Shown here: one piece after another, positions 806 through 33,261 of the stretch
How the letters are laid out: each line of letters opens with the position of its first letter
Position numbering within the stretch: the first letter of the stretch is position 1
Assembly: GCA_903870165.1 (NCBI GenBank)
Contig: CAIQBW010000033.1
Coordinates: 124,001 to 188,000, forward strand
Origin: an uncultured Methylophilaceae bacterium
GTDB lineage: Bacteria > Pseudomonadota > Gammaproteobacteria > Burkholderiales > Methylophilaceae
DNA length: 64,000 bases
Reading direction: 5' to 3'
Translations under genes and position numbers: made by a program
The notes under the pieces: model-generated
Databases searched by the model: none
Seen by the model: only the letters and a program-made list of their open reading frames with translations
Told to the model about the DNA's origin: nothing

Positions 806-828
806 AACCGTCCTGATTCAGGACGGTT
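806..828. repeat. Element-1 palindrome AACCGTCCTGA-T-TCAGGACGGTT
   Basis: 11-bp arms with one central base; related copy at 3489-3510. Confidence 0.7.
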
Positions 829-844
829 AAACAGCGGATTAAAA

Positions 845-866
845 AAAGCAGCCCGAAGGCTGCTTT
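845..866. terminator. Hairpin terminator AAAGCAGCC-CGAA-GGCTGCTTT
   Basis: 9-bp stem, tetraloop, flanking A/T tracts, just 3' of the AAA+ gene. Confidence 0.6.
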
Positions 867-876
867 CCTTTTGCTA

Positions 877-1614
877 CTAAATTGCTAAGAGTGGATTAAC
901 AACGGGCGCTTTTGGCTTGGGTGTTTTTGGTGGTACTAGATCTTTAATAGATTTAGTCACGACCAACGTTTTAGGATTTTTAACATCCCAAACCAATGCT
1001 TCAAGCTGTTCTAGTAACTTACGATTGCTAGAGCTGACCGCAAGCTGTTTAGTTAAGAAATTCAAAAGCTGTGCGTCTTTCAACTTCACGCCCTCTTCTT
1101 TCAAAATAAACTTAGCTCGAGGCAACCAATCCCTAGCACTGACAGGTGGAATGTTTAGGCAAATACTACGATCCTGCAATCCTTTATCAATACTCGCTAG
1201 ATTGTTTGTTGTGAAGATGAACTGTGTGTGCTCCTGCAACTCATCAATGACATCACGAAATGCCAACGCTGCTTTGACTGTAAAGTTAAATTCATTGCTG
1301 ACCATGTAGTTACGGTTTTGACCATTAGTGGTAAACAACTTATAAAACATAGGCGGCGCATTAAACAATGCCGACACATCGTAGACCGTATTAAACTCAA
1401 CTGCCTTTAACTTCTCAATTAGTGCAGGCTTACCCTCAATCGCACTTGGTAATAGGTTAGCAATGGTTGTTTTACCTGTACCAAACTCTCCATGCAAAAT
1501 TAAAGGCTGCTTCAATTCACCTGCTACATACGCAGCTAATTTGTCTTTTACATTCGCGTTAGCAATCACCACATCTGCCAATACCTTTGGCGCATATTTC
1601 AATACATAACTCAT
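877..1614 (-). CDS. RFC/gp44-like AAA+ ATPase (core module, element 1)
   Basis: Walker A GEFGTGKT, sensor-1 FIFTTNN; Walker B reads NYMVSNE. Confidence 0.7.
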   Translation of the reverse strand: MSYVLKYAPKVLADVVIANANVKDKLAAYVAGELKQPLILHGEFGTGKTTIANLLPSAIEGKPALIEKLKAVEFNTVYDVSALFNAPPMFYKLFTTNGQNRNYMVSNEFNFTVKAALAFRDVIDELQEHTQFIFTTNNLASIDKGLQDRSICLNIPPVSARDWLPRAKFILKEEGVKLKDAQLLNFLTKQLAVSSSNRKLLEQLEALVWDVKNPKTLVVTKSIKDLVPPKTPKPKAPVVNPLLAI

Positions 1615-1664
1615 TTGATTCTCCTGTTCTTTAAAAGAGCGAGGGCAAAAGCCCCCGCGTTTGA

Positions 1665-2441
1665 TTAAGCAACTTCTTCCAACATTTCTGCATCGTTAGC
1701 TGCTAAGTTTTTTGCATCTTCAAGTGCTTGAGCAGCCTGCTCTTGTGCAATACGATCAGCGGTATCAATTAACGCCTGTGCAATCTTTTTAATTGCCGCA
1801 TCAATCATTGCGCTTGTTGAGTTAGGCACAACACTTAACACTTTGGTCTTGCCATTTGCCTGCATCTTACCAATGAGCAATGTGTATTCCCCTGTGTCAG
1901 CAGCGTTAACTAAGTAAGTCTTATTAACGGTAGCCAATGGCGTTTCAATTGCACCAACTAGCAAGTCTTTTACTTCGTCTACTTTGGCTTCAAGCAGAGC
2001 TCGCTTTTTAAGTGTTTCGTCTGTTGCCCCTTTAACGCGAGCCACATCTTCAATACCCCCAAAGTCAGCTACCCAATCTGCAAACTTAGCCACTTCAATC
2101 TTTTCATTTGCAGCAACACGCAAAGCTCGTGCGTAGTTGTGAGCACGGCGACGATCTGTATCAAACACATAACGCACTAACAAAGTCATCACAGGTGTGC
2201 TTTCTTGAATCTTTACCTTGCGTCCTTTAAGCGCAACCTTAATACCGTCCAAGATTTCCTTTTCAGCTGTCGTGCCTTTAATCTCGTAAAACGATTCCAA
2301 GCAACCTGCTAATAATGTGTAAAGACCTTTGTTAGTACGATCAAACTCCACCTGCCAAGTCGTGCGTTTTTTAGCAAGTTCATCCAACTTAGCGATTACA
2401 GAAGTTGTTACAGCGATTTTTTGTGATTTAGATAATTTCAT
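1665..2441 (-). CDS. Core-module ~260-aa protein, unknown function (element 1)
   Basis: Paralogous to ORFs 6695..7534 and 27455..28261; shared RRRAHNYA-like and GGIE/GGVQ segments; ORF track start is TTG at 2468, ATG at 2441 more likely. Confidence 0.7.
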   Translation of the reverse strand: MKLSKSQKIAVTTSVIAKLDELAKKRTTWQVEFDRTNKGLYTLLAGCLESFYEIKGTTAEKEILDGIKVALKGRKVKIQESTPVMTLLVRYVFDTDRRRAHNYARALRVAANEKIEVAKFADWVADFGGIEDVARVKGATDETLKKRALLEAKVDEVKDLLVGAIETPLATVNKTYLVNAADTGEYTLLIGKMQANGKTKVLSVVPNSTSAMIDAAIKKIAQALIDTADRIAQEQAAQALEDAKNLAANDAEMLEEVA

Positions 2442-2479
2442 TTTTTTAGTACTTTCTGCCCATGGCAATATTTAAAAAA

Positions 2480-2535
2480 GTTGTTAGGCGGAATGCTTAA
2501 CAACATAGTGACTAACGGAGTTGTTTGTTAATCAC
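2480..2535. promoter_or_regulatory. Two tandem hairpins in the divergent core-module intergenic region (element 1)
   Basis: GTTGTTAGGC-GGAAT-GCTTAACAAC (2480-2504) and GTGACTAAC..GTTAATCAC (2508-2535); near-identical DNA at 28273-28328. Confidence 0.6.
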
Positions 2536-2617
2536 CATAAGTCGCATTGTGAAGAAAGTTTGAGAGCATGTAATTTATATGAAATAATGATGTTATTAAT
2601 TTATATAAAGTATTTGT

Positions 2618-3502
2618 ATGAAAAACTTGTTTGGATTTGGCTCTGGATGGCGCCAAGTGACAGGTAATGCGAATTACAAACATGAGTACATGTTTTATTA
2701 CTTGATGGTAAGTCCCAGCTATTGGCTAGCGCATCGTCAAGTACATTTGAATGAAATCATCCCAGAAAGTGAACTGCCCGAAGACTTTGATCAGGTATTA
2801 GAGGTATATAAAAAGTTTGGTGATATTTACTCAACACACTTTATTAAATGGTGGGATCAAACAGGTAAGGATTTGTTTGCGGGTAAGGCGACTAAAGATC
2901 GTATTTTGATCAGCATTGATCCAACGAAACCTAAACAAGAGTTGTTGGATGACTTTATGGAATTGTTGGCAAAGCTTGATAGCAGAGAGAAGAAAACACC
3001 ATCGAGCAAGATTCAGTTTGAAGTGAATAAGATCAGAGTCACATCACTTCATAACCGCTTTCAGTTGGTATTAGCGAAAGCAGAGTTCTTTCAAAACAAA
3101 ATCAAAAAAGAACAGTTATGGAAGCTGGCGAAATACATTGGGATTAATTCAACCAAGACTAAAGAGATTAGACTTAATAGCAAAAAGACATCAGCAAACT
3201 TAGAAACGAGAACTTACTTAAGTATCTTGGCTAGTAAGAATCTAAGTGATGCGCTATGTCTTGCTGAGAATGCTGCTAGAGGTAAGTTTCCTAGCCTTGA
3301 GCCAATCAAAAGTGGATTAAAGTTTGATTACGTTACAATCAAGAAGCAACAAGATCTATACGCCAAAAGAACTTGGGCGCTATTGGTTGAGGAGGAAAAG
3401 AACAAGCAAGATTACGAGAAAATTCTGTCACCATCGAATTCAACAAGAAAGATTAAACCTATTAATGAGAGAGAAATGATTGAGATAGACCGTCCTGATT
3501 AA
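2618..3502 (+). CDS. Core-module ~294-aa protein, unknown function (element 1)
   Basis: Shares MKN[LI]FGFGSGWR, SPSY.LAHR, LP.DF..V...YKK.GD with ORF 28411..29283. Confidence 0.75.
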   Translation: MKNLFGFGSGWRQVTGNANYKHEYMFYYLMVSPSYWLAHRQVHLNEIIPESELPEDFDQVLEVYKKFGDIYSTHFIKWWDQTGKDLFAGKATKDRILISIDPTKPKQELLDDFMELLAKLDSREKKTPSSKIQFEVNKIRVTSLHNRFQLVLAKAEFFQNKIKKEQLWKLAKYIGINSTKTKEIRLNSKKTSANLETRTYLSILASKNLSDALCLAENAARGKFPSLEPIKSGLKFDYVTIKKQQDLYAKRTWALLVEEEKNKQDYEKILSPSNSTRKIKPINEREMIEIDRPD

Positions 3503-3510
3503 GGACACTT
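3489..3510. repeat. Element-1 palindrome, degenerate copy ACCGTCCTGATTAAGGACACTT
   Basis: Matches 806-828; overlaps the stop codon of the upstream ORF. Confidence 0.55.
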
Positions 3511-3511
3511 A

Positions 3512-4078
3512 ATGAAAGAATTTCAAAAAATGACTGACCCAATAAAAATTCAACGCATCGCAAGATGGACACTTCATTGCATATCCAATATTGCCTGTTA
3601 TAGAGCTGGGTGGAACGAAACACCGCATCCCAAAACCTTAAGAAATAATGATGATTTTTGGGCTAGAGCAAATGGCAACTTTTTAGATGCAGCTGTCCTA
3701 AACTGGTGTATTTTATTTGCTGAGGCAGATGGCAAACATTACTGGCTAAAGGCATTTGAAACAAAAGTTCACTTAGCTAATGATCTTTACCAAGCAATCG
3801 GTATGACCGAAAGCGCATTTAATGATGAGTTATTGGAAGTAAAAAGGTATAGAGACAAATATCTAGCACATTTGGACAACCCTCCATCTCAGGAACTTTT
3901 TTATCCAGAAACTGAGTTCATGCTAAAAAGTACCAAACATCTTTTTGAAACATTAAAGTCTAATGAGCAAACAAAAGATGCCCTGATTGGAGTATATCTT
4001 GATGCAGATGAGCACTACAACGAGAAATACGAAGAAGCTAAAACTGAAATTTTAGCTTCTATAAGGTCGCCAAGTTAA
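3512..4078 (+). CDS. AbiU2/HEPN-like protein
   Basis: YRDKYLAHLD matches the HEPN R-x(4-6)-H motif; helical composition. Confidence 0.45.
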   Translation: MKEFQKMTDPIKIQRIARWTLHCISNIACYRAGWNETPHPKTLRNNDDFWARANGNFLDAAVLNWCILFAEADGKHYWLKAFETKVHLANDLYQAIGMTESAFNDELLEVKRYRDKYLAHLDNPPSQELFYPETEFMLKSTKHLFETLKSNEQTKDALIGVYLDADEHYNEKYEEAKTEILASIRSPS

Positions 4079-4185
4079 GCCATTTTCCAACAGAATCACC
4101 ACAGATTTACGATTTAAGGATGCCACAATAGATTTAGTTTGCTATAATGCCGGTCTTTCGTGATGTGCAAACATCAAGAAATGAT

Positions 4186-4261
4186 GGCTGGGTAGCTCAG
4201 TTGGTAGAGCAGCGGATTGAAAATCCGCGTGTCGGCGGTTCGATTCCGCCCCCAGCCACCA
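4186..4261 (+). tRNA. tRNA-Phe(GAA)
   Basis: Acceptor GGCTGGG/CCCAGCC, anticodon loop TTGAAAA, T-loop TTCGATT, encoded CCA; TATAAT at 4143. Confidence 0.95.
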
Positions 4262-4281
4262 GTACTTTATTATTTTAAATT

Positions 4282-4308
4282 AACGACTTAGATGAAAATC
4301 AAGTCGTT
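4282..4308 (+). terminator. Terminator downstream of tRNA-Phe
   Basis: AACGACTT..AAGTCGTT stem followed by T-run. Confidence 0.6.
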
Positions 4309-4605
4309 TTTTTCGCCTAAAATCTCGCCACACACCGGTTGCGCATTTCACACTTTGAAAACACACTATTTCCATTGTTTATAAAAAGTGGAAATTAAGC
4401 TATATCGCAACTATCTGAAAATTCAATACAAATACTCGACGGTGACATAACTTTAACCAAGCGTCCTCGCAGCTCTGCTTGGCAATGCCGATACAAAATT
4501 GGCAGGCATTGGGTACGGATTACAACTAAGCAAAAGGATTTAGAAAAAGCCAAAAAAACAGCTAAAGACGCTTATCTACGAGCCAAGTTTAGAGAAGAAG
4601 AAGGC

Positions 4606-5607
4606 TTGCCTATCGTTAATAAGCGTTTCGATGTTGTCGCCAGCTTAACAAAGCGCAAGCTAATAGAAGCACTTGAAGCAGGCGAAGGCAAAGTCATTTA
4701 TAAAGACTACATTACTGCTATCGACAAGTACCTCATTCCATTTTTCGGCAACTACAACATATCGAGTATTACCTACGCACTTATCAGTCAGTTTGCTGAA
4801 TGGCGAGACAAGCGGCTAGGGCGCAAAACAAAAGCCAGCACTATCAACACCCACAACTCCACATTAAACAGAATATTTGAACAGGGTTTAATGTTGGGCT
4901 ACTTGGTTAAATCACAAATCCCAATGCTACAAAACAAAGGCATTAAAAGTGAGCGCCGCCCTGCTTTTACATTAGAAGAATATAAGCAATTAAGTAGATT
5001 TATGCGGCGTTGGATTGATAGCGGCAAAGAAGGTAAAAGCAGAGATATGCGTTACCTGTTGCGCGACTATGTATTGATATTAGCCAACACTGGTATGAGG
5101 CACGGCACTGAAGCATATGGCATTAAATGGAAGCATTTAAGTTGGCATATGAACGACGGCGTTCGAGTATTAATGATTAGTGTAGACGGCAAAACAGGAC
5201 AGCGAGAATTGGTAGCAAGGCATAGTGCTGTTCGATACTTTAAGCGCATACATAGTTACGCTGCGGATTTGAAACATATGAGTTTTGAAGACTTAATTAA
5301 ACGCGGCATTAATGAGTATGTATTTAGATTAGCCGACGGCACAAAGACTGAAAACTTGGGACATACATTTACAGCTTTATTAGAAGACGCTGAGCTATTA
5401 GTAGATAGAAGAACAGACACAAATCGTTCTTTGTATAGCCTGCGACATACTTATGCGACATTCGCTTTGCTGTATAACAAAACGCCCATTTTTGATTTAG
5501 AAATACAAATGGGCACTAGCGTAGAAATGATTAGAAAACATTACTCACATTTAACAACGAGAAATGTTGCGAGGCAGTTAGCAGGTGGACAGCAAAAGAA
5601 ACGGTAG
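4606..5607 (+). CDS. Tyrosine recombinase / integrase (element 2)
   Basis: C-terminal SLRHTYATFAL...MGTSVEMIRKHYSH; homologous to ORF 29981..31195. Confidence 0.85.
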   Translation: MPIVNKRFDVVASLTKRKLIEALEAGEGKVIYKDYITAIDKYLIPFFGNYNISSITYALISQFAEWRDKRLGRKTKASTINTHNSTLNRIFEQGLMLGYLVKSQIPMLQNKGIKSERRPAFTLEEYKQLSRFMRRWIDSGKEGKSRDMRYLLRDYVLILANTGMRHGTEAYGIKWKHLSWHMNDGVRVLMISVDGKTGQRELVARHSAVRYFKRIHSYAADLKHMSFEDLIKRGINEYVFRLADGTKTENLGHTFTALLEDAELLVDRRTDTNRSLYSLRHTYATFALLYNKTPIFDLEIQMGTSVEMIRKHYSHLTTRNVARQLAGGQQKKR

Positions 5608-5680
5608 CGTAGATTGGCGTAAGGCAGTCTAAAACACGAGATTAGAATTTATTGCTAACGCACTAGCGGATATTAACAAA

Positions 5681-5695
5681 GTCGTTTTAAACGAC
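5681..5695. repeat. Element-2 palindrome GTCGTTTTAAACGAC
   Basis: Exact copy 1 of 7. Confidence 0.8.
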
Positions 5696-5884
5696 TTTTG
5701 TATGTGTACCCATAAAAAATTACTGCGCAATTTTCAGCGCATACGGAGAACCTAACCCCCACCACTTTTAATCTACTACCCCACCATTTCCACTAAAACC
5801 AGCCATTTTTAGGCGATTTTTATTCAAAAATTAGCAGTAGCAAAAGAGAGAGTTGAGAGGAAGGCAGGTATAGCTAAAATGAAA

Positions 5885-5910
5885 AAAGCCTACTGTAAAA
5901 AGTAGGCTTT
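5885..5910. terminator. Hairpin terminator AAAGCCTACT..AGTAGGCTTT
   Basis: 10-bp stem beside the AAA+ gene, separate from the palindrome. Confidence 0.6.
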
Positions 5911-5917
5911 GTTAGTT

Positions 5918-5932
5918 GTCGTTTTAAACGAC
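5918..5932. repeat. Element-2 palindrome GTCGTTTTAAACGAC
   Basis: Exact copy 2 of 7. Confidence 0.8.
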
Positions 5933-5936
5933 TTTG

Positions 5937-6671
5937 TTAAGCAGCACGCTTTAATAAACGCTCAGCAATTAACATTCTCACTGCCATTAAAATCTTGCGT
6001 GCGCTGCCCTCGCAAGGTTCAATAATGTTTAACAGCAGTTTGTCCTCAATGCCTGTTATGCCATAGTCCGCTAAAATGCCGCGCACTTTTGGTAGCCAAT
6101 CTTTACTAGCCGCAGCATTAAACTCAACGACTGCGCAGCGATTAATTACGCCGCCTTCAACTTTAGACAAGTTATTTGTAGTAAGAATAAAAATACTATT
6201 GTTAACGCCTGTGTTCATTGCTACTTTAAGTGAAGACATACTCTCGCTGCGCAAATTGTCTACCTCGTCTAGTACAAAGTAGTGATAAGCGTTAGCGAAT
6301 GGAACGAGTTGTGTTTGTGACTTAATGCGTTCAATCACAGTCGCGCCGTTATCCCCGCCCTGCGCTACATTGACATAAGTGACATACGCATCCTCACCCC
6401 CATTATTCACTTCAAAAACTTGAGGCAGTATTTTAGCGAGTGCGCTTTTGCCAGTGCCATAAGTGCCGTGTAGCAAAATGCCATTAACGCCAGTCGAAGG
6501 AAAACCAAAACTACCATTCGTTAAACTTTCCATTTTGTTTCTTGCTTGCGCTGTGTGAAACACAATGTCGTTAAGTGTTTTTGGTTCGTACTTGCTATCA
6601 AACTCTTTAAAAATATTGTTCATATATTCATTCCTTTTATAAAAAATAAAGACAAAAAAAGTGCGCAACAT
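5937..6671 (-). CDS. RFC/gp44-like AAA+ ATPase (core module, element 2)
   Basis: GTYGTGKS Walker A, FVLDEVDN Walker B, FILTTNN sensor 1. Confidence 0.8.
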   Translation of the reverse strand: MLRTFFVFIFYKRNEYMNNIFKEFDSKYEPKTLNDIVFHTAQARNKMESLTNGSFGFPSTGVNGILLHGTYGTGKSALAKILPQVFEVNNGGEDAYVTYVNVAQGGDNGATVIERIKSQTQLVPFANAYHYFVLDEVDNLRSESMSSLKVAMNTGVNNSIFILTTNNLSKVEGGVINRCAVVEFNAAASKDWLPKVRGILADYGITGIEDKLLLNIIEPCEGSARKILMAVRMLIAERLLKRAA

Positions 6672-6694
6672 TTCTGCTGCGCACAGTTGTTAAA

Positions 6695-7534
6695 TTAAGC
6701 TGCTGCTTTAATAGCGCTATCAATCGCAGCGTCGTTAGCCGCAGCTTTTTGCTCTACTTTCTTATTACTAATTTTTGTTTTGTTAACGCTATAGCAAGCA
6801 GCTAGTGCTGTATTAACTGCGCCCGTGCTATTAGTCACAGCGTTAATTACAAACTTGCCGTTAGCTTTTTGTGTCGCAACAAACACCACTTGTTGCCCTA
6901 CTTTGCTAGCGTCTAATGTTTCAGCTATGCCTTCGCTACTTACTTCAGCTAATACTTTTTTAGCTAAAAACTTTTGTACTGCTTCAGCTTTTGCTTTAGC
7001 TGTTAACGCATTGCCTTTAGCTAGCTTAATTTCTTGTACACCGCCGCTGTCTTTAATAAACGCAGCAATATCTTTAGCTTTTAAGCCTTTAGCAAATGCT
7101 GTGCGTAACACAATGCCGTAAGTGCTAATGCGTCGTTTGTCTGTGTCGCCAAATACGCACTTAACAATCTTTACTAAAGTGTGCGTACTTTTATTAAACA
7201 CCAACTTGTTAGCGTTAATGTAACTGTCTAGCTGTTCACGCATATCTTTTGCTTTAGCGTTATCTGCGCACATTGCTAAGTAGCTCTCGTAGCACTCAGC
7301 TAACAACTTATAAAGCTCGTTGTTGCTTTTTGTGTATGCGTTTTTCTGCCATTCTTTGTGTGCGAAAGCTAAAGAGCTAACAAAATTAACAACGCTTTTT
7401 GCGCTTTTAGTTTGTTTAACATTGTCGTTTAAAACGACTTTAGTTTTAGCGGTTACTTTAAGTGCTGCTGAAGTTGCTGCTGTGTCAATTGCTGGTACTG
7501 CTAAAGTTACTGTAGTCATAATATTTTCTTTCAT
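6695..7534 (-). CDS. Core-module ~270-aa protein, unknown function (element 2)
   Basis: Paralogue of 1665..2468 and 27455..28261 (NNELYKLLAECYESY, FGDTDKRR, GGVQEIK). Confidence 0.7.
   Translation of the reverse strand: MKENIMTTVTLAVPAIDTAATSAALKVTAKTKVVLNDNVKQTKSAKSVVNFVSSLAFAHKEWQKNAYTKSNNELYKLLAECYESYLAMCADNAKAKDMREQLDSYINANKLVFNKSTHTLVKIVKCVFGDTDKRRISTYGIVLRTAFAKGLKAKDIAAFIKDSGGVQEIKLAKGNALTAKAKAEAVQKFLAKKVLAEVSSEGIAETLDASKVGQQVVFVATQKANGKFVINAVTNSTGAVNTALAACYSVNKTKISNKKVEQKAAANDAAIDSAIKAAA
7424..7438. repeat. Element-2 palindrome GTCGTTTAAAACGAC inside a CDS
   Basis: Exact copy 3 of 7; encodes VVLND. Confidence 0.8.
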
Positions 7535-7550
7535 ATAAAATTAAAAAAAT

Positions 7551-7588
7551 GTGATTAAGTTGTTAATGAATTACTATCTCTTAATCAC
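7551..7588. promoter_or_regulatory. Hairpin in divergent core-module intergenic region (element 2)
   Basis: GTGATTAAG..CTTAATCAC, like the second hairpin of elements 1 and 3. Confidence 0.45.
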
Positions 7589-7662
7589 TGTAAACATTAT
7601 ATAATTTTATCTACTTTTACTCTTTCTCTAGCAAATACTGCCAATTTGGATGTTAATAAAAT

Positions 7663-8391
7663 ATGAAAGTATCTTTCCCTGCCATATACCCTGTGTTTGG
7701 CACTAAAAACAACAGAAAATCTTTGTCCTACCAACAGCGCAGTCCTTACTATTGGTGGTGGACTTATCTGCGTAAAAATGAGCGATACATTGCTTGTTGC
7801 GACTGTGGTGGTGAAGGTGAATTAGCCGAGTTGTATAAAGACTTTGGGGATGTGAGAGGTGAAGAGTTTAGGTTGTGGTGGAATGAAAAAGGAGCGCAGT
7901 TATTTGCTGACTTTACTACACCAGAAATAACAGAATTGAAGGATAAAGCAGAGTGGCAGAATGACTGGGCGCCAAATGAAATGCTGGTGTTGGCAGTGCC
8001 GTTAACTGAAAACAAGCGAGACTTACAACGCCAATTTGCCAAGTTGCTCAAAAAAAGACACGGCGCTAAAAGTGGGCGTAAAAAAGCTGAATGGAATGTG
8101 GGCAACGCCAAATATAAAATTAATCGTAACTTTACGATTGATAGTCTGCGCACTGCCTTTACAGTTTACGAGGAATATATTGAAAACCTCAAAAGAGAAA
8201 AGAAAGAGCAACTGACTTTTTGGCAAATGGGAGAAAAGCTGAAATTAGTTTCAACAGCTCTGGCAAAAGCTAACGACACACGCGAAGATAAAATACTTAA
8301 ACGCAATAGTATGGCAGTCAGTGTTAATCGATATATTAAGCAAGCCAAGCGTATCGTTGAAGGAACAGCTTTAGGTAAGTTTCCACTTTAG
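7663..8391 (+). CDS. Core-module 242-aa protein (element 2)
   Basis: Same position and orientation as 2618 and 28411 ORFs; shares spacing of YYWWW/ELYKDFGDV../FRLWWNEKGAQLF. Confidence 0.65.
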   Translation: MKVSFPAIYPVFGTKNNRKSLSYQQRSPYYWWWTYLRKNERYIACCDCGGEGELAELYKDFGDVRGEEFRLWWNEKGAQLFADFTTPEITELKDKAEWQNDWAPNEMLVLAVPLTENKRDLQRQFAKLLKKRHGAKSGRKKAEWNVGNAKYKINRNFTIDSLRTAFTVYEEYIENLKREKKEQLTFWQMGEKLKLVSTALAKANDTREDKILKRNSMAVSVNRYIKQAKRIVEGTALGKFPL

Positions 8392-8405
8392 TCGTTTAAA
8401 ACGAC
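8391..8405. repeat. Element-2 palindrome GTCGTTTAAAACGAC
   Basis: Exact copy 4 of 7; overlaps stop codon. Confidence 0.8.
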
Positions 8406-8472
8406 TAATTTTATTTTTAATAATAAGAAGCGTATAGAATAATCATACGATATTTTGAAGTTAGGGATATTT

Positions 8473-25376: not shown

Positions 25377-25435
25377 CTATACATTATATAGGTCGTTGAT
25401 TTAATGTCAACGCATTAGGAATAGTGCCTTTAATG

Positions 25436-25461: not shown

Positions 25462-25468
25462 GATTGAA

Positions 25469-25759
25469 TTATCTTCTTTTGCTGGCTTTGATATATGCGA
25501 ACAACCCATCTCTACGACCAACAGATAGGACAATGACCACCAAGCGATTATCAATAACATCGTAAACTAAGCGATAGCCAATTTTTTGAAGTTTGATTTT
25601 GTAACAGCCTTCAAGATCATTACCTAATCTTGCAGAGGGCACATGCGGGTTTTCCAAGCGTTTTTCTAATTGCTTTTTAAACTGCGCCTTAATTGATCCA
25701 TCTAAATCATTCCACTCTTTTAGAGCTTCTTCGTTAAACTCTAACTCATAGATCATCAA
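25469..25759 (-). CDS. RelE/StbE-type toxin
   Basis: YELEFNEEALKEWNDLD..., CYKIKLQKIGYRLVYDV, VLSVGRRDG. Confidence 0.85.
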   Translation of the reverse strand: MMIYELEFNEEALKEWNDLDGSIKAQFKKQLEKRLENPHVPSARLGNDLEGCYKIKLQKIGYRLVYDVIDNRLVVIVLSVGRRDGLFAYIKASKRR

Positions 25760-25994
25760 GCGATACTTTCACTGTTCTACCACCGCGACGCTCTCTCACG
25801 ATCTTGCTTAGTTCAACATTCTCGACTTGATCAAGTAAAGCTTCATAGTAGTTTGCTGACAGCAAATAAGCTGCAGGCTTGTTATGGTTTAACACGGCTA
25901 CTGGTGAATCACTGACAATATCAGCAATGCTGGCACGACGTAAATCGGTCATGCTAACAGTAGCAGGCGCATAGATTTTATGTGTAATAGTCAT
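25746..25994 (-). CDS. Phd/StbD-type antitoxin
   Basis: VSMTDLRRASIADIV, PVAVLNHNKPAAYLLS. Confidence 0.8.
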   Translation of the reverse strand: MTITHKIYAPATVSMTDLRRASIADIVSDSPVAVLNHNKPAAYLLSANYYEALLDQVENVELSKIVRERRGGRTVKVSLDDL

Positions 25995-26080
25995 AATATT
26001 ATCGTGTCTTATAATGTGTAAATTAGTGTGTATTATTATATGTAATAATATCGATGTCAAGAACATGCAGATCAACAACA

Positions 26081-26101
26081 AGCGCCGCGTTAAGCGACGC
26101 T
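26081..26101. repeat. Element-3 palindrome AGCGCCGCGTTAAGCGACGCT
   Basis: Copy of element-3 family. Confidence 0.75.
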
Positions 26102-26113
26102 TGTATTAGTCCG

Positions 26114-26635
26114 CTAAACTGAAAAATTCAAATTAATAAACTCAGTTATTGCCATTTTTGCTAGGTGTAAAAAGCAATACTGTCCTCCTTCAAACTCCTC
26201 AAATGCCAGCTCTAATTTCTTTTTAAGATCACTAGCTTTGTTTAATTTTGTTTGCTGGCAAAAATCTCTGCTGATCAGTCTTGATTGATAGCACAAATCA
26301 TCAATCTCTATAAAACGATATAACTGCTTGCTGTAACGTTGTAACTTTTGACTATCAGCTGAGCTGGCAATTTTAAAACATGGCCCAAACGTATATAGCC
26401 TATGGAGAGTTAGCCCTTTTTCATTAAAGTGATAAACAATCCGAGCCTGTTTATACTCTTTATCGAAATAAGAAACATAATCATGCAGAATGCTCGCTTC
26501 TTCGCAAAACCTAAGTGCGGTGGGCTGAGTTAAATCATACTCTTCAACCATACCCTCTAGCCAATCAGGCAAGTTTTCACTAAATTCATCACCAAATAAA
26601 ATCAGCTTTGCTGGATAGTTTTTAGCCTTCTTCAT
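26114..26635 (-). CDS. Unknown 173-aa protein occupying its own palindrome-bounded cassette
   Basis: ORF between palindromes at 26081 and 26661. Confidence 0.5.
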   Translation of the reverse strand: MKKAKNYPAKLILFGDEFSENLPDWLEGMVEEYDLTQPTALRFCEEASILHDYVSYFDKEYKQARIVYHFNEKGLTLHRLYTFGPCFKIASSADSQKLQRYSKQLYRFIEIDDLCYQSRLISRDFCQQTKLNKASDLKKKLELAFEEFEGGQYCFLHLAKMAITEFINLNFSV

Positions 26636-26660
26636 TTGTATCCCTTTCTTTGTTGATACA

Positions 26661-26681
26661 AGCGTCGCGTAACGCGACGCT
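26661..26681. repeat. Element-3 palindrome AGCGTCGCGTAACGCGACGCT
   Basis: Copy of element-3 family. Confidence 0.8.
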
Positions 26682-26696
26682 TTTAGTTAGATGGTG

Positions 26697-27395
26697 TTAA
26701 GCCTTTTTCTTAACGACTGAAAGTGAGGGTTTAATAGGCTGAGGTGCTGAAGCTATAGGCAAACCGTTATTGTTCAGAAATAACAATTCGTCTAAACAGC
26801 GCAGATACTTCCGTAAACTGCCAAACTTCTCCCATTGCGCTAGGTGATACTCCACTTGATAGCCAGGCAAAACTAAGCCTTCTGCTTTTAAGATATATTG
26901 AGCACGTGGTAGAAATGATTTTGCTGTAACGGCAGGCAAGCTAATAACATCACAACGATCACGTACACTTTTATGAATATTCGTTGGCTCATTGGTGGTG
27001 ATAATCACCATGAACATATCGCCCAAGTCATCCATCGCAGTCCATAACTTATGTAGCTTTGAACTGTTGTTATCAAACTCGTGGAATACCATATAAAACT
27101 TCGGCGCATTAACTGACCACTGATTAATAGAACAAGCATTACGCAGATAATCTTTTAAGTTCTTTTGACCCAATACCTCTTCAAAATCCTTGTCCTCAAT
27201 CACTGCGTGTTGCCCATCAATTGCGTATGGCAATAAATTAGCAATTGTTGTTTTGCTAGTGCCGTTAGGCCCATGTAATAAAATATGGCCTTCCAAACTT
27301 TTGTTCGCATAAGCTTTAATGCGACGCTCAACTGCCGTACTTGGATAAAGCACCTCATTTAAGTTTTGGGGTGCGTACTTTTCTTCACACTTCAT
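26697..27395 (-). CDS. RFC/gp44-like AAA+ ATPase (core module, element 3)
   Basis: GPNGTSKTTIANLLP, FYMVFHEFDN, MVIITTNE. Confidence 0.7.
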   Translation of the reverse strand: MKCEEKYAPQNLNEVLYPSTAVERRIKAYANKSLEGHILLHGPNGTSKTTIANLLPYAIDGQHAVIEDKDFEEVLGQKNLKDYLRNACSINQWSVNAPKFYMVFHEFDNNSSKLHKLWTAMDDLGDMFMVIITTNEPTNIHKSVRDRCDVISLPAVTAKSFLPRAQYILKAEGLVLPGYQVEYHLAQWEKFGSLRKYLRCLDELLFLNNNGLPIASAPQPIKPSLSVVKKKA

Positions 27396-27454
27396 AATGT
27401 TTCTCCAAAAAATGAATATAAAAGGGGCACAGAACGTGCCCCTTGTTTGCTTAA

Positions 27455-28234
27455 TTAAGCAGCGAGTTGTTCAACTAAAGTGCTGTCATTGCTAGGTACA
27501 TCTAGCAAGTCATTCACTTCTGTTGCCATTGCTGTTTTTTCAGCAGTTACTTCTACGTGCTGTTTAGCTAGTTTTTTCAACAAAGCGTTGTAGAGTGCCT
27601 CATTCACATCGCCTAATACTCCAATGATGTCTGTGTCGCCATTTACGTTAGGTTTAGCAACCAATACAGCGTAGTCACCTTTGATGTTGCCAAGCTTTAC
27701 ACTAGCAAGTGGTTTAATCTTAGCTACTTCCAAATCAGCAACAACCGCCTCTTGTGCTTTAGCAAGCTCAGCACGTTTTTGTAGTGTCTCTTCCTTAACT
27801 ACCATCTTGCGTTTGATTTCTTCAATGCCACCTTCATCCGCAATGTAAGTAGCAAGATCTGCAGCTTTTACATCATGCGAAATCGCGGCTTTAATTACGT
27901 AGGTGTAAGCGTGAGCACGTTTGCGATCGTTACCAAACACATAACGTACAAACATCGTTAGTGTTGTTGTATTACGTTGTACTTTTAAGCCATCTGCTTT
28001 TAGCTTAGCTTCCAAGTCGCTTCGTAATGTTTTGCGATCGTCATCTTCTGCTGTTACAAATTTGCTATTAAACAAATCCAAGCAATCTGCCAATAAAGCA
28101 TAGAGGCCTTCGTTTGCTTTTTTATAGTCAGTTGCTTCCCACGTAATACGGCGCTCACGCAAACCATTTAGTGTTGCTAATGCTGAGTTAGAGAAAGCTA
28201 CGTTAGTAGTTGATGCAATAAAAACTGTTTTCAT
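27455..28234 (-). CDS. Core-module ~260-aa protein (element 3)
   Basis: Paralogue of 1665..2441; ORF track TTG start at 28261, ATG at 28234. Confidence 0.7.
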   Translation of the reverse strand: MKTVFIASTTNVAFSNSALATLNGLRERRITWEATDYKKANEGLYALLADCLDLFNSKFVTAEDDDRKTLRSDLEAKLKADGLKVQRNTTTLTMFVRYVFGNDRKRAHAYTYVIKAAISHDVKAADLATYIADEGGIEEIKRKMVVKEETLQKRAELAKAQEAVVADLEVAKIKPLASVKLGNIKGDYAVLVAKPNVNGDTDIIGVLGDVNEALYNALLKKLAKQHVEVTAEKTAMATEVNDLLDVPSNDSTLVEQLAA

Positions 28235-28272
28235 TTTTTTAGTACTTTCTGCCCAAGGCAATATTTAAAAAA

Positions 28273-28328
28273 GTTGTTAGGCCGAATGCTTAACAACATA
28301 GTGACTAACTGAGTTGTTTGTTAATCAC
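28273..28328. promoter_or_regulatory. Two tandem hairpins in divergent core-module intergenic region (element 3)
   Basis: GTTGTTAGGC-CGAAT-GCTTAACAAC and GTGACTAAC..GTTAATCAC. Confidence 0.6.
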
Positions 28329-28410
28329 CATGGATCGAATTTTTTCATAGATTTGTGGATGCGTAATTTATACAAAATATAGATATACTTATTTGGTATA
28401 ATATTTTTAT

Positions 28411-29283
28411 ATGAAAAACATATTCGGATTTGGCTCTGGATGGCGCTTGCTTCAGGATGAGGCAAGCTATAAGCATGAGTATCTGTTCTATTACCTTCAA
28501 ATAAGTCCAAGCTATCAGCTGGCACATCGCATCATCGGTTTAGATGAAAAAGTAGACGAAAAAGAACTACCCAAGGACTTCTCTAAAGTAATAGATACCT
28601 ATAAGAAGCTAGGTGACGTTTATACAAAGCACTTTGTGGAATGGTGGAAAGATATTGGTAAGGATGCTTTTGAAGAAAAGAAGAATGAACGCATCTGGAT
28701 TGGCATAGATCCATCAAAATCTAAAGCAGAATTGCTGAATGATTTTCAGGTATTTTTGAATAAGCTAGAAACTAAGAAAAATGAGCCAATAAGTAATAAA
28801 GTTAAATTTGAGGTAAATAAAATCAGATTAACTTCTTTAACAAAAAGGCACAGCCTAGTTCTAGAAAGAGCCATGTTTAATGGCAAGAATGGATTTAAGA
28901 AAGAGCAACTGTGGAAACTACTTAAGGCGGCAGAATATCCATCTTCAAGATCAAAAGAAGTAAGACTCAATAGTAAGAAAACAGCCAAGAACCACGAAGC
29001 AAGAACTTACTTGAGCATTCTAGCCAGCAAGAATATCAAACAAGCCTTTTATATCGCAGAGAATGCGGCTAGAGGAAGATTTCCCTGCCAAGAACCCATC
29101 ACAACTGGGCTAAAGTTTGATTTCGAGAAGATCAACGCAGTGGCAAATACTTATACAAAGAAGGCTATGGAGCTAGCTATTCAAGCTGAAAAAGCCAATG
29201 AGGACTACATGAAGATGATCAGCCCTACAAAGTCATATAAGAAGATTAAGAAAGTTGATGTTGGTCAGATGTTAGAGGAGTAA
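28411..29283 (+). CDS. Core-module ~290-aa protein (element 3)
   Basis: Paralogue of 2618..3502. Confidence 0.75.
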   Translation: MKNIFGFGSGWRLLQDEASYKHEYLFYYLQISPSYQLAHRIIGLDEKVDEKELPKDFSKVIDTYKKLGDVYTKHFVEWWKDIGKDAFEEKKNERIWIGIDPSKSKAELLNDFQVFLNKLETKKNEPISNKVKFEVNKIRLTSLTKRHSLVLERAMFNGKNGFKKEQLWKLLKAAEYPSSRSKEVRLNSKKTAKNHEARTYLSILASKNIKQAFYIAENAARGRFPCQEPITTGLKFDFEKINAVANTYTKKAMELAIQAEKANEDYMKMISPTKSYKKIKKVDVGQMLEE

Positions 29284-29317
29284 ACTTTTATGCGAGCAGC
29301 TTATAAGAAGGGGCAAT

Positions 29318-29524
29318 ATGAAATATCTTAAACTTACAATTGAAGTGCTAACCTACGTTCTTATACTGTTAGCTTCTTTATTTGTATGGGGCTTATCACT
29401 AGATCCTTATGCACCCCCAGAACGAAACTTCGCTCTTTTCTTATTCGCAATTCTGATATTTATGTATGGAGTTTGGCGTTTCATGACCAGAAAAGAAAAA
29501 CTTTGGATTTGGCAGATTTTCTAA
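29318..29524 (+). CDS. Small membrane protein
   Basis: Two hydrophobic helices. Confidence 0.5.
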   Translation: MKYLKLTIEVLTYVLILLASLFVWGLSLDPYAPPERNFALFLFAILIFMYGVWRFMTRKEKLWIWQIF

Positions 29525-29908
29525 ATGAAATTTAAAAAAACATTTTGGATGAACGTAGTGATTGCTATCGCTTGGCTTGGACTTAGCTGGTTAATGCTAA
29601 GTATGTATATATCTGAGCATGGCCTTGAACATCACTTTGATGTCGTCGCGCTTCAATACCTATGTATAGTTGCCGCTCCCATTGTTACTGCGCTCGCCAT
29701 TTATTATACAAACAAAAAACCTTTACGATACTTGGCACTGTTTGCAAATTATGCGGCCTTGGTTTGCTGTGTACTTCTTTCTGTTTTGTTCTTTTATATG
29801 AATCCAAATATTCTTTTTAGTTGGGATTTATTGGCAATTCCTATCACTTTTGTGATGTTTGGATTACCGGCATTTATAAATCTAAAAGCATTAAAGCTAG
29901 TGCAATAG
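29525..29908 (+). CDS. Membrane protein, four predicted TM segments
   Basis: Hydrophobic ORF directly after previous stop. Confidence 0.5.
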   Translation: MKFKKTFWMNVVIAIAWLGLSWLMLSMYISEHGLEHHFDVVALQYLCIVAAPIVTALAIYYTNKKPLRYLALFANYAALVCCVLLSVLFFYMNPNILFSWDLLAIPITFVMFGLPAFINLKALKLVQ

Positions 29909-29955
29909 GCTGATAACTTTTCGATCGCTCTTTACCTAATCAGAAAACATAATTA

Positions 29956-29978
29956 AGCGTCGCGTAACACGACGCTTA
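29956..29978. repeat. Element-3 palindrome flanking integrase cassette
   Basis: AGCGTCGCGTAACACGACGCTTA; identical to 33239-33261. Confidence 0.85.
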
Positions 29979-29980
29979 AT

Positions 29981-31195
29981 ATGCAAAACTTAAACAGCTT
30001 ATTTCAGACCAATTCTTTATCAACACCCCAAACCATCAAATTCCACGATGGCAAAATCACGCTCTTCAAAAGACCAGATTCCCATCAATGGCAATGTCGT
30101 TTTAAATTACCGACTGGTCAGTGGCATCAAGCATCTACTGGGAAGAATAGTGTTGATGCAGCCAAATCCCAAGCAGCCATTATTTACGAAACTGCCAAAA
30201 TTAATATCAATCAAGGCTTGTCATTAAGCACAAGGACATTCGCTCAGATTGCCAGAGATGTCGTGAATGAAATGGAGCGAACCAAAGCTGCTAGGAAGTG
30301 GAAAAAAACCTATAACGATTACGAAATAGTACTCAGAAAATATCTAGTCCCGTTCTTTGGATCAATAGAAGTGAGTGCTATCAATTCTAAACACATCGCA
30401 GATTTTGAAGCTTGGCGGTTAACGCAGATGCCATCAGAACCAAAAGGCAGCACACTGCGCAATCATGCTAGCGCATACAATCGCGTGATCAAAACAGCCC
30501 GTCAACAAGGCTATATTCACGACAACAAACCTGTGCCCATATTAAGTGCTGTGGGCGAAAAAGGGAGTCCGCGGCCTGCTTTTAATAAAGAGGAAATTGA
30601 ATACCTATTAGCCTTTATGCCTGAATGGGAGAAAGGTGGGTTTATGCCTATCTTTAGTGATTTCAGAAAGCTCTGTCGGTGCTATGTAGAATTCTTACTC
30701 TATACGGGGATTAGACAAGGTACTGAATCATTGCCTTTAAGATGGCTACATTTTCAGTGGCACTGGATTGGAGAAAAGAGATATTTGAGAATATGGGTAT
30801 CGGGCAAAACAGGACCACGCTATCTAATTGCTAGGCCTGCTGTGATTGATACATTGAATAGGCTGATTCAAATTCAAAAACTACCTTATCAAAATCTAGA
30901 TGAAGTTATTGCAGCTAGATTAGACAAGCCTATATTTGTAACACATGAAGGTCATAAGCCAAGAAGCTTTGAAAGCGTATTTAGGAACTTGATGAATTCT
31001 TCTGGATTACGAAAAGACATGGCTGGCAAGTTCAGGTCTTTATATAGCTTACGTCATACCTATGCGACTTTTGCTCTTACAGAAGGTATAGATATCCACA
31101 CACTAGCTAAACAGATGGGCACATCAATCGCAATGATTGAACGCCACTACTCCAAGATTACGCCAATGCTTAGTGCTGAGAAGTTGGCTTATTAA
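29981..31195 (+). CDS. Tyrosine recombinase / integrase (element 3)
   Basis: LLYTGIRQGTE, SLRHTYATFAL, MGTSIAMIERHYSK. Confidence 0.9.
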   Translation: MQNLNSLFQTNSLSTPQTIKFHDGKITLFKRPDSHQWQCRFKLPTGQWHQASTGKNSVDAAKSQAAIIYETAKININQGLSLSTRTFAQIARDVVNEMERTKAARKWKKTYNDYEIVLRKYLVPFFGSIEVSAINSKHIADFEAWRLTQMPSEPKGSTLRNHASAYNRVIKTARQQGYIHDNKPVPILSAVGEKGSPRPAFNKEEIEYLLAFMPEWEKGGFMPIFSDFRKLCRCYVEFLLYTGIRQGTESLPLRWLHFQWHWIGEKRYLRIWVSGKTGPRYLIARPAVIDTLNRLIQIQKLPYQNLDEVIAARLDKPIFVTHEGHKPRSFESVFRNLMNSSGLRKDMAGKFRSLYSLRHTYATFALTEGIDIHTLAKQMGTSIAMIERHYSKITPMLSAEKLAY

Positions 31196-31320
31196 ACTCT
31201 GCATTAACGAAAAAGAGGCTCTAAATTAATACTCATTTACTAGGACAAAAAATGTAATATTATCAATATGCCAATTACTATCTTTCACCTTTCAGCACTA
31301 AAAACTAACAAAGGATTTAT

Positions 31321-32085
31321 ATGTACGAAATAAATGCGAGCGAAGTTAGCGCTGAGTTCGCTGAGTGCTGGAAAGCTGCAGGGCTTCACATTCAAAATCA
31401 AGCGCAAGGGGGACTCCGAAGTTGGCTTAGAGCGCACTTAAATCCACCATTCTTAGAGCACTTGTCATTTAGATTAGGCAATCAACTTTTCTTTATTCAA
31501 ATCATTGATGTTGATGGCAAGCTAGAAACCCCAGGTAATCCTAATGGACTAAAAATGATTGCGAAAGCCTGTAATGGCCACGCATGTTTTATGCCTATGC
31601 GAAAGATCAATGGCCAATGGACGGTTTTAGAAAGCGGTTGGGGGTTGGTTGATGTTGAAACTATAAAGCCCATTCATCCAGTAGACTTGATCAGTGAGGA
31701 AAAAATTGTAATGACCGACTGGGAACTACAAGACTTTGCAGTTCAAATCGTCAAAGACAATCTGATTGCTCAAGGTAAAGAATTGACTTCATGGCACGGC
31801 AACCCCAACGTAAATCCTTCCATCTGGTTTGTTGGTGATAACAGTTTAGAATGGGTATTAGTAAAAGCCGCAAGATGGCCAGAAAGAGAGTGTGAAGTTC
31901 CAGAAAACATTAACGAAATTGCAAAGAGTTTTGAGCAAGTCAGTACAAAAGGGCATTTTGCTGCTGTGAAAGTTGCTAGTGCCAATGACCCCTTCGATCC
32001 CATGGCGAAAGAAAATGGCAATTTCAGCGAACTTTATCGTGGCGAAGCACTTACTGCTTCTTATCACGGACTGACTGATCTTTAA
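31321..32085 (+). CDS. Unknown 254-aa cargo protein
   Basis: Intact ORF. Confidence 0.5.
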   Translation: MYEINASEVSAEFAECWKAAGLHIQNQAQGGLRSWLRAHLNPPFLEHLSFRLGNQLFFIQIIDVDGKLETPGNPNGLKMIAKACNGHACFMPMRKINGQWTVLESGWGLVDVETIKPIHPVDLISEEKIVMTDWELQDFAVQIVKDNLIAQGKELTSWHGNPNVNPSIWFVGDNSLEWVLVKAARWPERECEVPENINEIAKSFEQVSTKGHFAAVKVASANDPFDPMAKENGNFSELYRGEALTASYHGLTDL

Positions 32086-32099
32086 TGGAAAAATAAGCA

Positions 32100-32624
32100 A
32101 TGACCGATTCAGTAGCCTCAAATCCAGACTTGGCAGAAACACTATTAGGCGAATTTTGTCAGTGGTTTAGCAACCTAGCAATACAAGGAACGGTTTTGCC
32201 AAAAGCTTTTAGTGGAGTCAATCCTGACGGCAAACAATTTATAATAATATTATCTGATCTCGGATTAGATACGATGGAGCACTTAGATTTTATGAGGTAT
32301 GTACTACATGCTGAAAAATCTATTGCCTTTGTATTCAAGATGCGAATGATTGCCCAGCTTAGCAAAGAGCCTGAAATATTGCAGGAGCAACATCAATTTA
32401 TATCTGGCCAACAAGGCTCATATCACAACATAGGCTTAACCTCGAAAGATGGAGAATCTTGGGAGTCTGGGACAATGATTTGTAATGAATCGCATTCAAA
32501 AGAGCCTGAGATGTTTTTTCAAGAACTACTACAAAATCCATATTCGCCAAGTGAAAATGATGAGAAGTACGCATCAATCTGGAATTCAGTTCGAGATCGC
32601 ATAAAGTGGCAATCTAGAATTTAA
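32100..32624 (+). CDS. Unknown 174-aa cargo protein
   Basis: Intact ORF. Confidence 0.45.
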   Translation: MTDSVASNPDLAETLLGEFCQWFSNLAIQGTVLPKAFSGVNPDGKQFIIILSDLGLDTMEHLDFMRYVLHAEKSIAFVFKMRMIAQLSKEPEILQEQHQFISGQQGSYHNIGLTSKDGESWESGTMICNESHSKEPEMFFQELLQNPYSPSENDEKYASIWNSVRDRIKWQSRI

Positions 32625-33187
32625 AAATCGGATGCCACCACTTTAAGATTATTCAAATAGTCTTCTGTTTCATTATAAATTTTGGTAGTAGACGTTTTAA
32701 TTTGATTTAGCGTTAGAAAAAACTTCTGGAAATCCTCAGCGCTCATTTCACGATACTCGTTAAGCGCTTTTTCCATTTGAATTTCTAATTGCCTTACTGC
32801 GGATGTTAGGTGCATTACGTTCGTAACTAATTTTGCTGATGGTAAGTCTTTAAGAGGTATTTGTTTTAGGGAGTCAAGTACTTCTGTTAGGCAATCCAAG
32901 TCAAAGTGCACTGTTTTGTTGATAACGTTATCAAGAGCTTCTCTACTAGACAATCTCTCTTCAACATATTTAACTCTTTGATCAGTGTTTTTGATTATTT
33001 CTGTCACTGCATCAGTTAAAACAATTTCTTGATTTCTGGCCTCTTGTTTTTGAAGTTTTCTACTGTTTTTGTATTGAGCTTTTGATTGATCTCTTCCGAA
33101 TTTTGCTGAGAAATAAATAGCGGCAGTTGCAGCTATTGCTTGCGCCCAAGCAGCCCAATCACTAGGACTCCACGATTTTAAGCACAT
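32621..33187 (-). CDS. Unknown coiled-coil protein with N-terminal hydrophobic segment
   Basis: WAQAIAATAAIYFSAKFG then helical region. Confidence 0.45.
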   Translation of the reverse strand: MCLKSWSPSDWAAWAQAIAATAAIYFSAKFGRDQSKAQYKNSRKLQKQEARNQEIVLTDAVTEIIKNTDQRVKYVEERLSSREALDNVINKTVHFDLDCLTEVLDSLKQIPLKDLPSAKLVTNVMHLTSAVRQLEIQMEKALNEYREMSAEDFQKFFLTLNQIKTSTTKIYNETEDYLNNLKVVASDF

Positions 33188-33238
33188 TTTACCATCCTCA
33201 AATTAACAATAAATTCGAGCATACATTAAAACACTCAG

Positions 33239-33261
33239 AGCGTCGCGTAACACGACGCTTA
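33239..33261. repeat. Element-3 palindrome flanking integrase cassette
   Basis: Identical to 29956-29978. Confidence 0.85.

What the first reader, a model, noticed from the sequence alone, without database searches (positions are those of the whole stretch)
806..33261. Element-specific palindromes partition three related mobile elements into gene cassettes
Directly seen: element 1 carries CCGTCCTGA-T-TCAGGACGG (806-828; degenerate 3489-3510). Element 2 carries seven exact GTCGTTT(T/A)AAACGAC (5681, 5918, 7424, 8391, 9656, 10580, 12078). Element 3 carries nine AGCGTCGCGTWACRCGACRCT variants (13243, 14624, 16015, 24591, 25438, 26081, 26661, 29956, 33239). Most sit just after stop codons and separate functional blocks in element 3: HATPase/STAS | MKERE+DUF6641-like | ncRNA+R-M+recombinase | TA1 | TA2 | 173-aa ORF | core module | integrase+cargo. 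The core module is bracketed in all three elements by that element's own palindrome (806/3489, 5918/8391, 26661/29956). Same architecture with a different sequence per element suggests a co-evolving recognition factor (small recombinase or a core-module protein). Possible roles: pdif-like cassette recombination sites, replication or packaging sites, or boundary terminators. Separate hairpin terminators lie beside the palindromes at 845-866 and 5885-5910, and two element-2 copies lie inside CDSs, so a pure terminator role is insufficient.
Basis: partly seen in the sequence, partly recalled or inferred. Interest (0 to 1): 0.88.

Follow-up and report, generated by a model that had tools for sequence, protein, structure and literature searches.

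The report
Palindromes bounding cassettes in integrative elements
Three mobile DNA elements lying in a row in this bacterium are built from swappable gene blocks whose edges carry short mirror-symmetric DNA sequences; each element has its own sequence version, and comparison with relatives suggests that a pair of uncharacterised proteins in the element's core, not its recombinases, recognises it.

Summary
All listed palindromes exist. In the host genome they lie only in a few element-like loci, and in a complete relative genome each type is confined to one 5-11 kb element. Across loci from many Betaproteobacteria, palindromes of one architecture (N3-GTC-paired core-GAC-N3) number 148 against 5.8 expected. 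They mark cassette edges: 108 of 630 homology breakpoints lie within 25 bp of one (8 expected), as do 9 of 13 clean presence/absence junctions (0.26 expected). Elements integrate in tandem at tRNA-Phe.

Palindrome sequence tracks two core proteins, A2 (~270 aa, no known family) and A3 (RFC/T4-gp44-type AAA+ ATPase): rho 0.67 and 0.72. It does not track A1 or the integrase, and tracks the small recombinase only weakly. The effect persists for palindromes more than 1 kb from the core. The small recombinase has its own candidate dif-like 11-6-11 site upstream of its gene, at which homology also breaks.

Best reading: element-specific double-stranded sites recognised by A2/A3 that delimit exchangeable cassettes. 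Recognition is supported by covariation only. That A2/A3 drives exchange, rather than silencing or partition, is inference. No match was found in the literature searched.

The parts
1..4180 (.). Element 1, right part (left part at C33:~113,150-124,000, locus L004)
   Evidence: Broken 5' half of tRNA-Phe at L004:1093-1153 and intact tRNA at window 4186-4261
4186..4261 (+). tRNA-Phe, integration target
   Evidence: ARAGORN and Rfam
4262..13039 (.). Element 2
   Evidence: Flanked by tRNA-Phe 3'-end repeats 4217-4261 and 13040-13084
13040..13084 (+). att repeat (3' 45 bp of tRNA-Phe)
   Evidence: Read directly
13085..33425 (.). Element 3
   Evidence: Flanked by tRNA-Phe 3'-end repeats 13040-13084 and 33426-33470
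33426..33470 (+). att repeat (3' 45 bp of tRNA-Phe)
   Evidence: Read directly
807..827 (.). Element-1 palindrome ACCGTCCTGATTCAGGACGGT
3489..3509 (.). Element-1 palindrome, degenerate
5681..5695 (.). Element-2 palindrome GTCGTTTTAAACGAC; homology to L086/L092 ends here
5918..5932 (.). Element-2 palindrome, left core bracket
7424..7438 (.). Element-2 palindrome inside the first ~35 codons of A2 (encodes VVLND)
   Evidence: same region in most A2 clades
8391..8405 (.). Element-2 palindrome, right core bracket, overlaps A1 stop
9656..9670 (.). Element-2 palindrome inside small recombinase CDS
10580..10594 (.). Element-2 palindrome
12078..12092 (.). Element-2 palindrome; homology to L002 ends here
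13242..13262 (.). Element-3 palindrome variant (left end of element)
14624..14644 (.). Element-3 palindrome; left edge of DUF6641/MKERE cassette shared with L037
16015..16035 (.). Element-3 palindrome; right edge of that cassette and junction of a ~214-bp insertion absent from L037
24591..24611 (.). Element-3 palindrome just after small recombinase stop
25438..25458 (.). Element-3 palindrome; left junction of the 1.2-kb block absent from L037
26081..26101 (.). Element-3 palindrome
26661..26681 (.). Element-3 palindrome; right junction of the 1.2-kb block, left core bracket
29956..29976 (.). Element-3 palindrome, right core bracket
33239..33259 (.). Element-3 palindrome near right end
26697..27395 (-). 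A3 of element 3: RFC-small/T4 gp44-type AAA+ ATPase
   Evidence: PDB 2chg E 7.7e-30; phrog_168 clamp loader E 5e-22
27455..28261 (-). A2 of element 3: unknown family, proposed palindrome-binding protein
   Evidence: No Pfam or NCBIfam hit, only a marginal PHROGs hit of unknown function, no fold match; covaries with palindrome
28411..29283 (+). A1 of element 3, unknown; does not covary with palindrome
877..1614 (-). A3 of element 1
1665..2468 (-). A2 of element 1
2618..3502 (+). A1 of element 1
5937..6671 (-). A3 of element 2
6695..7534 (-). A2 of element 2
7663..8391 (+). A1 of element 2
24016..24582 (+). Small catalytic-domain-only tyrosine recombinase, element 3
   Evidence: Pfam Phage_integrase E 5.7e-20; RKHRHY residues invariant
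23874..23901 (.). dif-like 11-6-11 inverted repeat, candidate core site of the small recombinase
   Evidence: GAATAAGAAAA-TTACAC-TTTTCTTAACC; homology ends here in comparisons with other loci
9308..10018 (-). Small tyrosine recombinase, element 2
29981..31195 (+). Large integrase, element 3
   Evidence: Pfam/PHROGs integrase
4606..5607 (+). Large integrase, element 2 (open frame begins at about 4399)

Best explanation
The palindromes are element-specific double-stranded DNA recognition sites for the core pair A2 (probably the sequence-specific, dimeric binder) and A3 (an RFC/gp44-type AAA+ ATPase partner). They sit at the edges of gene blocks and are the points at which blocks have been gained, lost or exchanged between related tRNA-integrated elements, so an element stays modular while keeping its own site 'address'. 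Shown here: position at cassette edges, confinement to elements, exact presence/absence junctions at palindromes, and covariation of site sequence with A2/A3 but not A1 or the integrase, and only weakly with the small recombinase. Inferred: that A2 physically binds the sites, that it binds as a dimer, and that the A2/A3-bound site promotes exchange. The small recombinase probably acts at its own separate dif-like site next to its gene, and the large integrase at tRNA-Phe.
For: Breakpoints: 108/630 within 25 bp of a palindrome vs 8.0 expected; 57/123 palindromes vs 22/164 palindrome-free gene junctions have a breakpoint (Fisher p 6e-10); 9/13 clean insertions/deletions at palindromes vs 0.26 expected, e.g. 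a 1.2-kb two-cassette block present in element 3 and absent from L037, where one palindrome joins the two flanks. Covariation (Mantel, 30 elements): A2 0.67, A3 0.72 (p 0.001), A1 0.10 ns, integrase 0.16 (p 0.08), small recombinase 0.35 overall but 0.13 (p 0.07) for the inner bases; non-redundant set A2 0.69 (p 0.0005), small recombinase 0.21 (p 0.06). Sites more than 1 kb from the core still track A2 (0.44) and A3 (0.56), not A1 or the small recombinase. Natural swaps: small recombinase 99% identical in L035 and element 3, and A1 91% identical in element 1 and L037, yet the palindromes differ as A2/A3 do. Held-out elements: nearest A2 gives palindrome similarity 4.13 vs 2.51 background; nearest integrase 1.46, nearest small recombinase 3.42. 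Confinement: in complete genome G103 six TAGT-type sites lie within 11.4 kb, and all GTTT-type sites but one two-mismatch match lie within 5 kb. Departures from consensus are mostly one-sided (61 vs 13 compensated), which favours a double-stranded site over a hairpin.
Against: No binding or recombination is shown. A2 has no recognisable DNA-binding fold. A2 and A3 are co-inherited, so which one reads the site cannot be separated. Breakpoints from many pairs are not independent events, and short repeats could recombine without any dedicated factor. Several A2-bearing loci (L061, L067, L089, L127-L129, L133, L134) show no clear palindrome family with my detector. An AAA+ plus DNA-binding pair with dispersed sites fits silencing, partition or replication as well. 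In the sites more than 1 kb away the integrase also reaches 0.23 (p 0.048).
Confidence: 0.58

Rival explanations
1. The palindromes are core sites of the small tyrosine recombinase (pdif-like or integron-like cassette recombination).
For: In many loci the palindrome lies 3-30 bp after the recombinase stop codon; the recombinase keeps all catalytic residues; the outer three bases correlate with it in the redundant set (0.465).
Against: Inner bases do not covary (0.13, p 0.07) and recombinases 92-99% identical occur with CTGA, GCGT and TAGT sites. A separate 11-6-11 inverted repeat with variable 6-bp centre sits at a fixed place upstream of the recombinase and homology ends there, which looks like its real site.
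Confidence: 0.12
2. The palindromes are dispersed operators of an element-encoded repressor or silencer (A2/A3), like mycobacteriophage stoperators; breakpoints cluster there because exchanges that keep operators at block ends survive.
For: Dispersed intergenic sites with element-specific sequence tracking one regulator-like gene; a palindrome lies within or near the start of A2 in most clades, as expected for autoregulation.
Against: Many sites follow stop codons rather than precede promoters; cargo such as restriction-modification and toxin-antitoxin genes should be expressed; an RFC-type AAA+ partner is unusual for a repressor; cassettes in mixed arrays carry several site types side by side, which fits mobility better than silencing.
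Confidence: 0.2
3. A2/A3 and the palindromes form a partition, replication or packaging system of the excised element.
For: Clamp-loader-type AAA+; dispersed palindromic sites resembling a centromere array.
Against: No relatives of A2 in 72,556 plasmids or 50,697 phages; no ParA/ParB-type gene in the core; does not by itself explain exact cassette junctions at sites.
Confidence: 0.12
4. The palindromes are hairpin terminators or RNA elements.
For: They fold well as RNA (-7.7 to -15.8 kcal/mol) and often follow stop codons.
Against: Most lack a U-tract, some lie inside CDSs, within-element changes are mostly one-sided rather than compensated, and the sequence tracks a protein pair.
Confidence: 0.04

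Closest known systems
pdif (xrs) modules of Acinetobacter plasmids
   Same: Gene blocks flanked by short two-armed sites, exchange between co-resident elements through compatible sites (PMC11705084)
   Different: pdif sites bind host XerCD in arms around a central region; here the sites are odd-centred palindromes that track A2/A3, and the element's own dif-like site is a different sequence
Mycobacteriophage L5/Cluster A stoperators
   Same: Many dispersed copies of an element-specific site tracking an element-encoded protein
   Different: Stoperators are asymmetric and bound by a monomeric repressor (PMC4557955); here sites are palindromic, mark block junctions, and the candidate factor is an unknown protein with an AAA+ partner
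Integrons
   Same: Recombinase gene with an adjacent fixed site (candidate attI analogue) beside variable cargo
   Different: Small recombinase scores far below the integron integrase cut-off; the palindromes do not follow the recombinase
Tycheposons and other tRNA-targeting tyrosine-recombinase islands
   Same: Large cargo islands integrated at a tRNA gene; tycheposons have been reported in Methylophilaceae (PMC10872708)
   Different: The Methylophilaceae paper mentions no palindromes or cassettes in its main text; the A1/A2/A3 core was not compared with Prochlorococcus tycheposons
RFC small subunit / T4 gp44 clamp loaders
   Same: A3 AAA+ domain (E 7.7e-30 to archaeal RFC small)
   Different: A3 is only ~230 aa, shorter than most full-length clamp-loader subunits (about 315-360 aa), and paired with A2

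Membership tests
pdif/Xer modules | Two 11-bp arms around a ~6-bp central region | tested here: not met
   Palindromes are symmetric about a single W base, with stems from the centre outwards; the separate 11-6-11 repeat does have that form
pdif/Xer modules | Site recognised by a Xer-type recombinase | tested here: inconclusive
   Inner bases do not follow the element's small recombinase; host XerCD was not examined and binding is not testable here
Integron | IntI-type integrase | tested here: not met
   Small recombinase scores 48 bits against an integron integrase cut-off of 265
Integron | attC sites folding as single strands | not tested
   No attC model was searched
Stoperator immunity system | Asymmetric site oriented with transcription | tested here: not met
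   Sites are palindromic
Stoperator immunity system | Bound by a repressor that blocks transcription | not testable with these tools
   No expression data
ParABS partition | ParA Walker ATPase and ParB-type protein in the core | tested here: not met
   A3 is RFC-type AAA+, A2 has no family hit
Plasmid or phage | Relatives among plasmids or phages | tested here: not met
   A2 of element 3: no tblastn match in either collection
tRNA-targeting integrative element (genomic island) | Integrase and tRNA-derived direct repeats at the ends | tested here: met
   Three tandem elements bounded by tRNA-Phe sequence; integrases
Clamp loader AAA+ | Sequence similarity to RFC small/gp44 with P-loop | tested here: met
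Clamp loader AAA+ | Loads a sliding clamp | not testable with these tools
   No clamp gene was looked for

The most novel reading that the evidence does not exclude
A new cassette-exchange system of bacterial integrative elements: an unknown DNA-binding protein (A2) and a clamp-loader-type ATPase (A3) recognise element-specific palindromes and drive block exchange there, while mobile cassettes collect several site types side by side ('polyglot' ends) and can so enter several element families.
Probability: 0.35. Interest if true: 0.92.

Novelty: categorically new. Interest (0 to 1): 0.8.

Why it matters
It would explain how defence and toxin-antitoxin genes are shuffled among genomic islands of small-genome freshwater bacteria without an integron or transposase. 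It also gives a naturally diversified protein-DNA specificity system (A2/A3 and its palindromes) in which about thirty protein/site pairs can be compared. The question is directly testable: does A2 read the palindrome, and does it cause exchange?

Tried and rejected
Small recombinase as palindrome reader: rejected by covariation, by natural swaps and by its own candidate site. Large integrase and A1 as readers: no covariation with core palindromes. RNA hairpin or terminator: changes mostly one-sided. Plasmid or phage origin: no A2 match; a viral-contig scan with the recombinase gave only six relatives at 24-29% identity. Structure of A2 and A1: usable models (pLDDT ~79) but no fold match. Literature searches found no description of these palindromes. 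A possible confound, mere linkage of core-flanking palindromes to A2, was tested with sites more than 1 kb away and did not explain the result.
Full report
Observation. Element 2 has seven perfect GTCGTTTWAAACGAC; element 3 has nine AGCGTCGCGTWACRCGACRCT variants with 0-3 mismatches; element 1 has two in the window and three more to the left, because it begins about 11 kb upstream of the window. All share the form N3-GTC-paired core around a central W-GAC-N3. Genome-wide scans find exact or near-exact copies only in C33 and in three recombinase-bearing arrays on C11, C12 and C18.

Anatomy. The three elements lie in tandem at tRNA-Phe. The last 45 bp of the tRNA recur at 13040-13084 and 33426-33470, and a broken 5' half of the tRNA lies at the left end of element 1. 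Each has a large integrase, a small catalytic-domain-only tyrosine recombinase with all catalytic residues, and a core of A1, A2 and A3. A3 is an RFC-small/T4 gp44-type AAA+ ATPase (PDB 2chg, E 7.7e-30). A1 and A2 match no family in Pfam (at its cut-offs) or NCBIfam (PHROGs gives A2 only a marginal hit to a family of unknown function, E 0.0085) and no solved fold. Cargo includes type IIG-like and type I restriction-modification, AbiL-like and toxin-antitoxin genes.

Relatives. The small recombinase occurs in 19 of 187 family genomes and in 59 loci of GTDB genomes, nearly all Betaproteobacteria by their titles. In long loci, sites of the general form number 148 against 5.8 expected. Of 11 family genomes with A2, 10 also have the small recombinase. 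In the single-contig genome G103, six TAGT-type sites lie in 122,084-133,486; GTTT-type sites lie in 1,602,060-1,607,110, apart from one two-mismatch match elsewhere.

Cassette edges. Homology between loci ends within 25 bp of a palindrome for 108 of 630 breakpoints (8.0 expected). Of palindromes, 57 of 123 carry a breakpoint, against 22 of 164 palindrome-free gene junctions (p 6e-10). Of 13 clean presence/absence junctions, 9 are at palindromes (0.26 expected). The clearest is a 1.2-kb block between 25438 and 26661, absent from L037, where a single palindrome joins the two flanks. Pairs share history, so these counts overstate the number of independent events.

Who reads the site. Palindrome similarity follows A2 and A3 identity (Mantel rho 0.67 and 0.72) but not A1 (0.10) or the integrase (0.16). 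The small recombinase gives 0.35 in the full set, 0.21 (p 0.06) in a non-redundant set, and 0.13 (p 0.07) for the inner bases. The pattern holds for sites more than 1 kb from the core (A2 0.44, A3 0.56, recombinase 0.13, integrase 0.23 at p 0.048) and in seven held-out elements. Natural swaps agree: small recombinases 99% identical in L035 and element 3 go with different palindromes, as do A1 proteins 91% identical in element 1 and L037. Departures from an element's consensus are mostly one-sided (61 vs 13 compensated positions), as expected for a double-stranded site bound by a symmetric dimer.

The small recombinase has its own candidate site. A GGTTAAGAAAA-N6-TTTTCTTAACC repeat, or a related inverted repeat, lies about 115-145 bp upstream of its start in many loci, with a variable 6-bp centre. 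In the Methylophilaceae set homology ends there in comparison after comparison, with different cargo beyond. Inverted repeats of this general shape occur in 27 of 85 upstream regions against 61 of 600 control regions.

Mixed arrays. On C11, C12, C18 and in L038, cassette ends carry several palindrome types about 20-50 bp apart, including one of the type found in the C17 element. This fits cassettes usable by several element families (inference).

Most likely mechanism. A2 binds each palindrome of its own element, A3 acts with it, and the bound sites are where blocks are exchanged; the large integrase moves the whole element at tRNA-Phe and the small recombinase works at its own site. Only the positions, junctions and covariation are shown. 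The active role of A2/A3 in exchange is inference, and silencing or partition through the same sites remains open.

Novelty. None of the families tested (pdif, integron, stoperator, ParABS) has all its tested defining features met, and no paper found describes these sites. The rating concerns the recognition system; the host elements themselves are ordinary tRNA-targeting islands.

Limits. Binding, exchange and function are not shown. The detector is built on GTC/GAC and misses other types (for example AACTCTCATTTTGAGAGTT in L065). Thirteen regions were fetched after the first analysis and only the seven with a readable palindrome family were used as the held-out set. A2 and A3 are co-inherited, so their roles cannot be separated here. 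Core palindromes for the Mantel test were picked by hand. Many loci are MAG contigs.

Noticed in passing
window 23874-23901; L004:5363-5390 and about 25 other loci: A dif-like 11-6-11 inverted repeat with variable 6-bp centre lies upstream of the small recombinase, and homology ends there: a candidate attI-like site.
   Followed up: partly
L001 8650-8740 and 10790-10920; L002 9410-9580 and 12689-12815; L038 478-1434: Cassette ends carry several palindrome types side by side, about 20-50 bp apart.
   Followed up: partly
window 7424-7438 and the equivalent region in many relatives: A palindrome lies within the first part of A2 in most clades, suggesting autoregulation or a junction inside the gene.
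   Followed up: partly
No Rfam hit in the window.
   Followed up: no
window 35411-35430: One palindrome-like AGCGTCGTTTAAACGACGGT lies outside element 3, beyond its right end.
   Followed up: no
G000:C17 (L138): A further element with a divergent A1/A2 core and a GTCAAAA...TTTTGAC palindrome, a type also present in the C11 and C12 arrays.
   Followed up: partly
L065:10572-10598, 14884, 16590: A Limnohabitans locus with a repeated palindrome AACTCTCATTTTGAGAGTT that lacks GTC/GAC.
   Followed up: no
L136:14988, L002:2847, L038:508: Another palindrome, about GTCGGGAWTCCCGAC, occurs near these elements.
   Followed up: no
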